Origin: Thermodesulfomicrobium sp. WS
GTDB taxonomy: Bacteria > Desulfobacterota > Desulfovibrionia > Desulfovibrionales > Desulfomicrobiaceae
Assembly: GCF_027925145.1 (NCBI RefSeq)
Contig: NZ_AP027130.1
Location: 1,798,001-1,862,000 of the forward strand
Direction: 5' to 3'
Length of the DNA: 64,000 nt
The position numbers and the translations under genes were made by a program. Shown here piece by piece: positions 12,281 through 15,835 of the stretch. Under the pieces are notes generated by a model, which was not told the DNA's origin, did not search any database, and saw nothing but the letters and a program-made list of their open reading frames with translations. Numbering within the stretch: the first letter of the stretch is position 1; each line of letters starts with the position of its first letter.

Positions 12281-12450
12281 CGTCGTCCTCCTTGTGATTG
12301 CTGGCAAAACGCCATGATGCCCACCAGCGGGCACAGCACAAGAAGGAATCCCTGAGGAGCAAAATCAGGAGGAATTTTCCTGGTTGAGCCCCTGGAGACA
12401 GCAGGTCACAGCATGGGGGGAGAAAATGGCCGTATCCCGGAGGAGGTCCC

Positions 12451-12669
12451 GTGTCCGCATCGCCGACCATCTGCTTTTGCTTCGGCTATACCGAGGCCGA
12501 CATCGTCGCCGACATCCAGGCCCATGGCCGAAGCACCATCATGGAACGTATCGTGCGCGAAAAGGCCCAGGGCGGCTGCAGCTGCGCCACCACCAATCCC
12601 AAAGGCCGCTGATGCCTGGCGGACGTCCGCCAGGTGGTGGACCGCACCCTGGGCCGCAGAACCCTGTGA
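12451..12669 (+). CDS. BFD-like [2Fe-2S] protein with probable selenocysteine at residue 54
   Basis: A GTG start with AGGAGG four bases upstream opens a frame beginning SASPTICFCFGYTEADIVADI and containing GGCSCATTNPKGR. An in-frame TGA at 12610-12612 follows. If the TGA is read through, the frame continues CLADVRQVVDRTLGRRTL to a TGA at 12667-12669, giving 72 residues. From memory, related BFD-like domains end NPSGRCCLKDF, so the TGA falls exactly where the first Cys of the CC pair is expected. A perfect hairpin lies immediately after the TGA. I infer selenocysteine insertion; otherwise the protein stops at 53 residues without its last Cys pair. Cys8, Cys10, Cys43 and Cys45 are candidate cluster ligands. 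The likely role is as an electron-transfer or iron-sulfur/metal chaperone. Confidence 0.65.
12610..12634 (+). promoter_or_regulatory. candidate bacterial SECIS element after the in-frame UGA
   Basis: Two bases after the UGA (12610-12612) comes CCTGGCGGACGTCCGCCAGG (12615-12634). This is a perfect 8-bp stem with an ACGT loop, or a 10-bp palindrome in DNA. Its place directly downstream of the UGA and inside the extended frame is what a bacterial SECIS requires. A caveat is that the loop G lies only about 13 bases after the UGA, closer than in the well-studied formate dehydrogenase SECIS. Confidence 0.5.
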
Positions 12670-13190: not shown

Positions 13191-13721
13191 TCAAGAATGA
13201 TCGAAATAAGGGGAAAGCAGCTCGGGCGCATCCTTCTGGATGGCCAAAACGATGCGCGCGCACGCCCATGCGTCGGAAGCGGCGTCGTGGTGCTTCAAAG
13301 GAATGCCCAAGTGCCTGCATACCACAGGCAGGGCTGCCGAAGGAAGATTCCAGGCCTTGCGGGAAAGGCGCACGGTACAGACGAAGGGCAATGCCGGGAT
13401 AGGGATGCCGTAGTGCCGGCAACAGGCGCTAAGCACTCCGCGATCGAAGGCCGCGTTGTGGGCGGCCAGAAACCGCGCCCCGGCCACAAGGGGGGCGATC
13501 TGCGGCCACAATTGCCCAAAATCCGGGGCATCGGCCACCATGGCCGGGGTGATGCCATGGATGCGGACACAAAACGGCGAAAAGGTCAGGTGCGGGGGCC
13601 GGATGAGACGCGCCAGCCGCGCCGTCACCCGCCCGGCCTCCACCCGCACCACGCCCACGGCGCAGGCGCTCTCGCGGCTGCCGTCCGCGGTCTCGAAATC
13701 CAGGGCGACAAAGACGGACAT
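13191..13721 (-). CDS. DEDDh 3'-5' exonuclease (DNA polymerase III epsilon-like)
   Basis: The 176-residue protein has all exonuclease motifs: VALDFETAD (Exo I with Asp and Glu), VRIHGITPAMV, FLAAHNAAFDRGVL (Exo II) and HHDAASDAWACA (Exo III with the catalytic His and Asp). It is a stand-alone exonuclease domain, shorter than full epsilon subunits, and may be a repair exonuclease rather than the replicative proofreader. Its ATG overlaps the hypE stop as TGATG, so it is coupled to hypE. Confidence 0.88.
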   Translation of the reverse strand: MSVFVALDFETADGSRESACAVGVVRVEAGRVTARLARLIRPPHLTFSPFCVRIHGITPAMVADAPDFGQLWPQIAPLVAGARFLAAHNAAFDRGVLSACCRHYGIPIPALPFVCTVRLSRKAWNLPSAALPVVCRHLGIPLKHHDAASDAWACARIVLAIQKDAPELLSPYFDHS

Positions 13722-14719
13722 CAGCAGATGCGCGGCAGCTGCTCGCCCTCCAGCATATCCGCCAGGCGCTGGCCGCCCAAGGGAGTGGTGATCACCACCC
13801 GGCTGGGGCCGGCCGCAGCCGTACCGATGCGCGCGGCGTGCCGGCCCAAGGGATGGGCGCGCAAGGCCGCCAGGGCGGCGTCGCCATGCGCCTCAGGCAC
13901 CAGGCACACGAGTTTGCCCTCGTTGGCGAGATAGAGCGGATCGAGCCCCAAGAAGGAACATCCGGAAGCCACCTCCGGCCGCACCGGCACGGCCGCTTCC
14001 TCCACCTGGATCTCCACGCCCGATTGGGCGGCGATTTCATTCAAGGTGGTGATGAGGCCGCCGCGGGTGGGGTCGCGCAGCACGTGCACCTCGGGCACCG
14101 CCGCGAGCACGGCCTCCACCAGGCCGTTCAAGCTCGCACAGTCGGAGACCACCGGCACGTCGAAGGAAAGGCCTTCGCGGCTCGCCATGATGGCCAGGCC
14201 ATGGTCCCCTAGAAAGCCGCTCACGAGCACCGCGTCCCCGGGCTTTGCGCGGTGGCCGCTGGGCGCGGGCTGCACCAGCACCTCACCGATGCCGGTGGTG
14301 GTGATGAACATGCCATCCGCCGCGCCTTTGGGCACCACTTTGGTATCTCCGGCCACCACGAGCACCCCGGCCTCCTTGGCGGCTTTGGCCATGGAGGTGA
14401 CGATGCGCTCAAGGTCCGCCATCAAGAAGCCCTCTTCGATGACGAAGGCCGCGGTAAGGAAGCGGGGGCGGGCGCCGAGCATGGCCACGTCGTTGACCGT
14501 GCCGTGCACCGCCAAGGCGCCGATGTCGCCGCCAGGGAAAAAGAGCGGGCTCACGGTGAACCCGTCGGTGCTCACCGCCACAGGCCCGGAGACGGGCAAG
14601 AGGGCGGCGTCGTCCATGCGGGTGAGATAGTCGTTGCCCAGCAATCGGAAAAAGAGGTCGTGGATCAGGCGGTGCGAGGCCTTGCCCCCGCTTCCGGCGT
14701 CCAAGAGAATGCGATCCAT
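13721..14719 (-). CDS. hypE: hydrogenase maturation protein HypE (carbamoyl dehydratase)
   Basis: HypE dehydrates a carbamoyl group on its C-terminal Cys to thiocyanate, giving the CN ligands of [NiFe] hydrogenase. The 332-residue protein has the N-terminal LDAGSGGKASHRLI motif and the PurM-like ATP sites (MDDAALLPV, STDGFTVSPLFFPGGDIG, VAGDTKVVPKG, DPTRGGLITTLNEIA). It ends PRIC with the required terminal Cys. It lies 21 bases downstream of hypD. The rest of the hyp set is not in the window. Confidence 0.95.
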   Translation of the reverse strand: MDRILLDAGSGGKASHRLIHDLFFRLLGNDYLTRMDDAALLPVSGPVAVSTDGFTVSPLFFPGGDIGALAVHGTVNDVAMLGARPRFLTAAFVIEEGFLMADLERIVTSMAKAAKEAGVLVVAGDTKVVPKGAADGMFITTTGIGEVLVQPAPSGHRAKPGDAVLVSGFLGDHGLAIMASREGLSFDVPVVSDCASLNGLVEAVLAAVPEVHVLRDPTRGGLITTLNEIAAQSGVEIQVEEAAVPVRPEVASGCSFLGLDPLYLANEGKLVCLVPEAHGDAALAALRAHPLGRHAARIGTAAAGPSRVVITTPLGGQRLADMLEGEQLPRIC

Positions 14720-14740
14720 CAGCGTGGTCCTTATCCGGGC

Positions 14741-15835
14741 CTAGCGCACCCGGTATTTGAAGTATGCGGCGCACGAGCCTTCGGTGGACACCATGCACGG
14801 TCCCACCGGGGCTGCCGGGGTGCAGACCCGGCCGAAGAGCGGGCACCCGTCCGGGGCGAGCTTGCCCTTGAGCACCTCGCCGCAGCGGCAGCCGGGAATG
14901 GGCGGCACGTCCTGCTCTTCCACGGCGAACACCACGCGGGCGTCCCAGGGGGCGTACTCGGGCCGCAGGGCGAGACCGCTGCGCGGGATGACGCCGATGC
15001 CGCGCCAGGGGGCGTCGGTGACGGCGAATACTTCGTCCAAGATGGCCATGGCCCGGGGGTTGCCTGCGTCCGCCACCACCCGACGATAACAGTTTTCCAC
15101 CCGCGCCGTGCCGCCTGCAGTCATCTCCGCCAGGGTCTTGATGGCGTCCAAGATGTCTACAGGTTCGAAGCCAGCGACCACCGCAGGGATGCCGTGCTCC
15201 GCGGCCAGGAATTGGTACGGCTCGGTGCCGATGATGGCCGAGACATGGCCAGGGAGGAGGAAGGCATCCAGAGAGATGTCCGGGTCCGCGGCCAAGGCCG
15301 CCAGGGCCGGGGGCACCAGCTTGTGCATGCTCAGCACGGAAAAGTTCATGATCTCCCGCGCCTTGGCCATCTGGAGGGTGGCTGCCACCGCCGGTGCCGT
15401 GGTCTCGAAGCCCACGCCCAAGAACACCACCTGTTCTTCGGGATGCGCGGCGGCCCACTCCAGGGCATCGGCCGGAGAGTAGACGATCTTCACCGTGGCG
15501 CCCTCGGCCTGCGCGGCCTTGAGGCTGCGCCCCCCGGGGCCGGGGACGCGCATGAGGTCGCCAAAGGTGGCCACGGTCACCTTGGGGCGGGAAGCCAGGT
15601 CCAAGAATGCCGCCACCTCGCGGTCGTGGGTGACGCACACCGGGCACCCTGGTCCGGAGAGGTGCTCCACCACGTCCGCGAGCACCGAGCGGATGCCGGA
15701 GCGGAAAATGGCCACCGTATGGGTGCCGCACACCTCCATGAAACGGAGGCGTCGGCCCGCCAACCGCTCGCGAATGGCCCCCACCAAAGAACGGCACAAC
15801 GCGGGGTCGTGAAAGCCGTCAATACGCTGATCCAT
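14741..15835 (-). CDS. hypD: hydrogenase formation protein HypD
   Basis: HypD is the [4Fe-4S] scaffold on which the Fe(CN)2CO group of [NiFe] hydrogenase is built with HypC. The 364-residue protein shows FMEVCGTHTVAIFRSG, LSGPGCPVCVT, GVGFETTAPAVA, PGHVSAIIGTEPY, AGFEPVDIL and the C-terminal cysteine-rich stretch GCRCGEVLKG...GPCMVSTEGSCAAYFKY. AGGAGGTCCC precedes the ATG. It starts the leftward run hypD-hypE-exonuclease-hypothetical. Confidence 0.95.
   Translation of the reverse strand: MDQRIDGFHDPALCRSLVGAIRERLAGRRLRFMEVCGTHTVAIFRSGIRSVLADVVEHLSGPGCPVCVTHDREVAAFLDLASRPKVTVATFGDLMRVPGPGGRSLKAAQAEGATVKIVYSPADALEWAAAHPEEQVVFLGVGFETTAPAVAATLQMAKAREIMNFSVLSMHKLVPPALAALAADPDISLDAFLLPGHVSAIIGTEPYQFLAAEHGIPAVVAGFEPVDILDAIKTLAEMTAGGTARVENCYRRVVADAGNPRAMAILDEVFAVTDAPWRGIGVIPRSGLALRPEYAPWDARVVFAVEEQDVPPIPGCRCGEVLKGKLAPDGCPLFGRVCTPAAPVGPCMVSTEGSCAAYFKYRVR

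What the first reader, a model, noticed from the sequence alone, without database searches (positions are those of the whole stretch)
12451..12669. Small BFD-like iron-sulfur protein with a probable selenocysteine at an in-frame UGA
The sequence shows a GTG frame with AGGAGG, a [2Fe-2S]-type Cys pattern, an in-frame TGA followed at once by TGC, and 18 further codons to a second stop. A perfect hairpin begins two bases after the TGA. As I remember related domains, the segment reads NPxGRCC; here it reads NPKGR-UGA-C, so the UGA sits where a Cys belongs. Genes this small are easily truncated in annotation. Selenocysteine next to a cluster-ligand Cys would be unusual chemistry for this fold. The inference is not proven: the hairpin loop is nearer the UGA than in the classic SECIS.
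Basis: partly seen in the sequence, partly recalled or inferred. Interest (0 to 1): 0.8.

Follow-up and report, generated by a model that had tools for sequence, protein, structure and literature searches.

The report
Small CopZ-type iron-sulfur selenoprotein
A 72-residue iron-sulfur protein in a sulfate-reducer-type bacterium is read through an internal UGA codon as the selenium amino acid selenocysteine; the protein belongs to an already catalogued but uncharacterised selenoprotein family, whose relatives often sit in arsenic-resistance operons.

Summary
The gene at 12451-12669 is real, and its UGA (12610-12612) is almost certainly decoded as selenocysteine. The UGA is conserved in 62 distinct relatives from Desulfobacterota. 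Residues after it stay conserved for ten codons while third codon positions vary. Cys homologues carry TGC/TGT there. The host has selA, selB, selC and selD. A same-genus genome with TGC at the same pdxS-linked locus has lost the hairpin, and no selA was found there (85% complete).

The SECIS is an overlapping hairpin at 12625-12642 (GUCCGCC-AGGU-GGUGGAC). Its loop lies 19 nt after the UGA, it meets all published bSECIS rules, and it covaries across the family.

The protein is a stand-alone half of CopZ's N-terminal domain (C8, C10, C43, C45, Sec54, Cys55). It matches a catalogued family: '(2Fe-2S)-binding protein, CopZ family, form 1', motif GxUC. So it is a new member of a known kind.

Not found described in the papers held: the covarying SECIS, the same-locus Sec/Cys switch, and a link to arsenic operons (arsP directly upstream in 11 of 87 loci; no hit in 20 control regions). 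Biochemical function is inferred.

The parts
12441..12446 (+). Shine-Dalgarno sequence AGGAGG
   Evidence: read directly; AAGGAGG at the same place before ATG in the sister genome
12451..12669 (+). Selenoprotein gene, GTG start to second TGA: 72 residues including Sec54
   Evidence: homologues
12472..12480 (+). C8-x-C10, first probable cluster-ligand pair
   Evidence: invariant in alignments A2/A3; aligned to Cys75/Cys77 of A. fulgidus CopZ 2hu9
12577..12585 (+). C43-x-C45; C45 aligned to Cys109 of 2hu9
   Evidence: invariant
12610..12612 (+). UGA codon read as selenocysteine (Sec54); Cys in homologues
12613..12615 (+). Cys55, adjacent to Sec, invariant; probable fourth cluster ligand (inferred)
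12625..12642 (+). bSECIS hairpin: 7-bp stem, AGGU loop at 12632-12635, loop 19 nt after the UGA
12614..12635 (+).

Best explanation
The gene encodes a 72-residue [2Fe-2S]-type selenoprotein. Shown by sequence: UGA 12610-12612 is a sense codon under selection, the SECIS at 12625-12642 covaries across the family, and the Sec machinery is present. The expected mechanism follows the established bacterial pathway: SelB with Sec-tRNA binds the AGGU loop of the SECIS and inserts Sec at the UGA. Inferred: a ribosome paused on the UGA would hold the 5' arm of the competing hairpin (12614-12622) in its mRNA channel, which frees 12625-12631 to pair as the SECIS. The protein is the [2Fe-2S] half of a CopZ-type N-terminal domain alone, without the further N-terminal half and without the HMA copper domain. 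C8, C10, C45 and probably C55 hold the cluster, leaving Sec54 (with C43) as a free, low-pKa selenol beside it. The most likely role (inferred, about 45%) is redox handling or carrying of a soft metal or metalloid, arsenic(III) in particular, because relatives are encoded directly behind the permease ArsP in ArsR-ArsC-ArsP-Trx-Acr3 operons.
For: (1) Of the family matches in 395 phylum genomes, 58 of 60 contain an in-frame TGA. Where read, it sits at the same codon, 62 distinct sequences in all. (2) After the UGA, amino acids are conserved for ten codons while third positions vary: Cys 62/62, Leu/Ile/Val 62/62, Asp 56/62, Val 60/62. (3) Cys homologues with NPKGRCCLGD lie in other phyla. (4) SECIS: 93% of cells paired in 33 sequences, 13 cells changed on both sides, covariation 0.291 versus 0.199 in shuffles, 0/500 as high. 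In 29 further sequences 90% are paired, including a wholly re-paired stem CUCCAGC-GGGC-GCUGGAG in L150. In Cys homologues the stem is broken. (5) The window hairpin meets each published bSECIS rule: loop 3-9 nt, stem 4-16 bp, G in the first two loop positions, spacing 16-37 nt, energy at most -7.5 kcal/mol (rules in PMC13188914; values 4 nt, 7 bp, AGGU, 19 nt, -11.0). (6) selA, selC, selB, selD (itself with an in-frame UGA), a UGA-containing formate dehydrogenase. (7) All 60 family-bearing genomes have selA, against 295 of the other 335 (p = 0.0009). (8) G002, same genus, same pdxS-linked locus: TGC, no SECIS, no selA hit. (9) Fold: pLDDT 91; best structural matches are Bfd (Z 5.7) and CopZ N-terminal domain 2hu9. 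(10) ArsP lies directly upstream on the same strand in 11 of 87 loci, with an ArsR in 12 and an ArsC in 10 of the neighbourhoods; no hit in 20 control regions.
Against: No protein-level evidence exists here. In the window the isolated sequence folds preferentially into the non-SECIS hairpin. G002 is only 85% complete, so absence of selA is not proven. Most relatives, and the window gene itself, are not in an ars operon; the own-genome ArsP lies elsewhere. Cluster ligation is by alignment only.
Confidence: 0.92

Rival explanations
1. The UGA is an ordinary stop and the protein is 53 residues long; what follows is non-coding or a decayed tail.
For: Standard reading of the frame; the first 53 residues still hold the C8/C10 and C43/C45 pairs.
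Against: Codon-like conservation for ten codons after the UGA, Cys homologues that read through, invariant Cys55, a covarying SECIS, co-occurrence with selA.
Confidence: 0.03
2. UGA is read through, but by another amino acid or by programmed read-through, not by Sec.
For: Conservation after the UGA alone does not name the amino acid.
Against: A consensus bSECIS, Cys in homologues, complete sel genes, and a Cys codon in the sister lacking a selA hit.
Confidence: 0.03
3. The SECIS is the first reader's hairpin 12614-12635, a non-canonical element with a short UGA-loop distance.
For: It is the minimum-energy fold of the isolated window sequence (-17.8 versus -11.0 kcal/mol).
Against: 77% paired across 33 homologues, zero compensatory cells, no better than shuffles; 74% in 29 further ones; its loop is about 10 nt from the UGA, outside the 16-37 nt range.
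Confidence: 0.03
4. Function: a dedicated electron-transfer ferredoxin (Bfd-like), with Sec only tuning or protecting the cluster, unrelated to arsenic.
For: Best fold match is Bfd (Z 5.7); most loci, including the window's, have no ars neighbour; some Cys homologues lie by mercury-type genes.
Against: Repeated exact placement behind ArsP in several families of the phylum and none in control regions.
Confidence: 0.4

Closest known systems
(2Fe-2S)-binding protein (copper chaperone CopZ family) form 1, cd10141, motif GxUC, WP_245779778.1 (tables in PMC13188914 and PMC9312934)
   Same: Same domain assignment and the same motif G-x-U-C (here GRUC).
   Different: The tables give only name, motif and one accession; the accession's sequence could not be compared here, and in the papers held I found no SECIS, distribution or operon described for it.
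Csac_0668 family 2Fe-2S (seleno)protein, NF045877 CopZ_Nterm_CU (form 2)
   Same: Homologous domain (E 1.3e-7).
   Different: Sec is the second of the pair (CU), the model is 161 positions long with an N-terminal half; 31.7 bits against a cut-off of 190.
CopZ N-terminal domain of Archaeoglobus fulgidus (PDB 2hu9)
   Same: CYC...C...NPSGRCC aligns (E 4.5e-5); fold match.
   Different: That chain has a further N-terminal half of about 70 residues, and Cys118-Cys119 in place of Sec-Cys.
Bacterioferritin-associated ferredoxin Bfd (PDB 6e6r, 4e6k)
   Same: Similar small helical fold, Z 5.7.
   Different: Second ligand pair is CxxC in Bfd (recalled, not tested); here CxC, and then UC nine residues on.
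NF047645 CopZ_Nterm_CC putative iron-sulfur metallochaperone
   Same: C-terminal half matches at E 1.4e-14.
   Different: Only residues 85-137 of the 138-position model are covered; below its cut-off (54.5 versus 100 bits); Cys-Cys instead of Sec-Cys.

Membership tests
Bacterial selenoprotein gene | In-frame UGA aligned with Cys of homologues and conserved in other genomes | tested here: met
Bacterial selenoprotein gene | bSECIS: loop 3-9 nt, stem 4-16 bp, G in first two loop positions, 16-37 nt from UGA, energy at most -7.5 | tested here: met
   rules; values; covariation
Bacterial selenoprotein gene | selA, selB, selC, selD in the genome | tested here: met
Bacterial selenoprotein gene | Selenium in the protein | not testable with these tools
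   needs 75Se labelling or mass spectrometry
(2Fe-2S)-binding protein, CopZ family form 1 | Sec motif GxUC | tested here: met
   GRUC; table in PMC13188914
(2Fe-2S)-binding protein, CopZ family form 1 | cd10141 CopZ-like_Fer2_BFD-like domain | tested here: inconclusive
   cd10141 model not on hand; NF047645 E 1.4e-14 over its C-terminal half, 2hu9 E 4.5e-5
(2Fe-2S)-binding protein, CopZ family form 1 | Similarity to the reference WP_245779778.1 | not tested
   record not in the collections held
Pfam Fer2_BFD | Score above the gathering cut-off | tested here: not met
   20 bits versus 26, E 0.00086
NF045877 Csac_0668 family (form 2) | Score above cut-off and CU motif | tested here: not met
   31.7 versus 190 bits; UC not CU
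Copper chaperone CopZ proper | HMA copper-binding domain and full N-terminal domain | tested here: not met
   72 residues; single Pfam match, Fer2_BFD 6-62
[2Fe-2S] protein | Bound [2Fe-2S] cluster | not testable with these tools
   inferred from conserved Cys and fold

The most novel reading that the evidence does not exclude
Sec54 is itself a ligand of, or directly redox-coupled to, the [2Fe-2S] cluster, and the protein is a selenol-based arsenic(III)/organoarsenical carrier or reductase that hands its cargo to ArsP or Acr3: a new step in metalloid resistance and a natural selenium-ligated or selenium-gated iron-sulfur site.
Probability: 0.15. Interest if true: 0.8.

Novelty: new member of a known kind. 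Interest (0 to 1): 0.42.

Why it matters
The selenoprotein call itself is secure but catalogued. What is useful is a family-wide, covarying SECIS; a same-locus Sec/Cys pair within one genus in which the Cys form goes with loss of the hairpin and no selA hit; and a repeated placement behind arsP that turns 'function unknown' into a testable hypothesis about selenium in arsenic handling. It also shows that the lowest-energy hairpin after a UGA can be the wrong one. Genes of this kind are likely to be cut at the UGA by gene callers.

Tried and rejected
Rfam gave nothing at the locus above chance. A phage or plasmid origin: no relatives in the viral contigs or phage records and only distant CopZ-type relatives on plasmids. 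TAL-effector hits in the structure-sequence search have per-stretch E-values of hundreds or worse and are spurious. The first scan of the formate dehydrogenase locus was made on the wrong strand and was redone. The SECIS of the host's own selD was not resolved. No held paper found links a selenoprotein to arsP (one search gave one general review, not read) or describes Sec as a [2Fe-2S] ligand; the 2023 and 2025 Haft papers on new selenoproteins are not held, so priority for the operon link cannot be judged.

Full report
OBSERVATION. The window holds a frame from GTG 12451 to a second TGA at 12667-12669, with AGGAGG at 12441-12446 and an in-frame TGA at 12610-12612 directly followed by TGC. 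Read through, it is MSASPTICFCFGYTEADIVADIQAHGRSTIMERIVREKAQGGCSCATTNPKGR-U-CLADVRQVVDRTLGRRTL. A sister genome has ATG at the same start behind AAGGAGG.

IS THE UGA CODING? A search of 120 relatives gave 20 genomes with a match, nearly all with one TGA inside. A scan of GTDB genomes gave 27 loci; their reading shows UGA at the same codon in Desulfobacterota and Cys (NPKGRCCLGD) in Bacteroidetes, Planctomycetes and an archaeon. In a draw of 395 genomes of the phylum, 60 have the family and 58 of those have an in-frame TGA. Two of those 58 copies look decayed (G441, G458). Over 62 distinct UGA sequences, residues are conserved for ten codons beyond the UGA while third positions vary, which is protein-level selection.

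SEC MACHINERY. selA, selC, selB and selD, itself with an in-frame TGA, are in the genome, as is a UGA-containing formate dehydrogenase whose hairpin also obeys the consensus. All 60 family-bearing genomes carry selA, against 295 of the other 335 (p = 0.0009). G002, of the same genus, has the gene at the same place beside pdxS but with TGC; there the hairpin is broken and no selA was found, at 85% completeness.

THE SECIS. The element that is kept overlaps it: 12625-12642, GUCCGCC-AGGU-GGUGGAC. It is 93% paired in 33 sequences with 13 compensatory cells, and its covariation score exceeds all 500 shuffles and all slid versions. In 29 later sequences it is 90% paired, loops GGGU, AGGU or GUGU for the most part, with one stem entirely re-paired (L150). 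It meets the published bSECIS rules (values). In Cys homologues the stem is broken. That a ribosome on the UGA opens the upstream hairpin and frees the SECIS is inference. The conserved R-Q/R-V-V after the UGA is probably in part a consequence of the RNA hairpin, since Cys homologues differ there.

THE PROTEIN. Pfam gives Fer2_BFD below its cut-off. NCBIfam gives the C-terminal half of a CopZ-type metallochaperone at E 1.4e-14. The profile finds the A. fulgidus CopZ N-terminal domain 2hu9, aligning C8/C10 with Cys75/Cys77, C45 with Cys109, and Sec54-Cys55 with Cys118-Cys119 (residue numbers counted from that alignment). The model (pLDDT 91) matches Bfd and 2hu9 best. Since 2hu9 offers only one Cys of the CxC pair, one of Cys118/119 presumably completes the cluster. 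Because Cys55 begins the last helix, as the fourth ligand does in Bfd (recalled), I take Cys55 as the ligand and Sec54 as its neighbour; this is inference, not shown.

CONTEXT. In the window and its sister the gene stands alone beside pdxS. In 11 of 87 UGA loci it lies directly behind an ArsP permease on the same strand, in operons with ArsR, an LMWP-type ArsC, a small thioredoxin, TauE and an Acr3-like transporter. The 87 loci include near relatives and six copies from one genome, so they are not independent. The same probes found nothing in 20 control regions of the same genomes. Some Cys relatives sit near MerA-type genes. This points to handling of soft metals and metalloids.

KNOWN OR NEW. 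Two reviews list a '(2Fe-2S)-binding protein (copper chaperone CopZ family) form 1', cd10141; the later one gives the motif GxUC and credits Zhang and Gladyshev 2008. GRUC fits. I therefore file this as a new member of a known kind; its reference sequence could not be compared. The covarying SECIS, the Sec/Cys switch and the ars link were not found described in the papers held, but key papers are not held.

Noticed in passing
L006, L022-L026 (G015, contig ends): A same-family genome carries at least six near-identical copies of this selenoprotein gene. They are identical from about 128 bp upstream (boundary TARCAGCGTGTTGAAAAA, like an insertion-sequence end) and have different flanks further out, so the gene seems to ride on a repeated mobile element whose other end is not assembled.
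   Followed up: partly
L218 (G000:C1:151464-152387): The host's selD is itself a selenoprotein gene with one in-frame TGA.
   Followed up: no
G000:C1:927671-934865: Two neighbouring formate dehydrogenase alpha genes, one with an in-frame TGA and one without: a likely Sec/Cys paralogue pair.
   Followed up: no
L209 (G441) and L212 (G458): Two relatives keep UGA-Cys and a SECIS-like stretch but have lost the first CxC pair or the N-terminal half, which suggests decaying copies.
   Followed up: no
L115: In one relative (G043) a selB-like gene lies about 3.3 kb downstream on the same strand.
   Followed up: no
window 13721-15835 (-): By eye, hydrogenase maturation genes hypE and hypD lie downstream on the opposite strand; hypE gives a weak hit to the selD model.
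   Followed up: no
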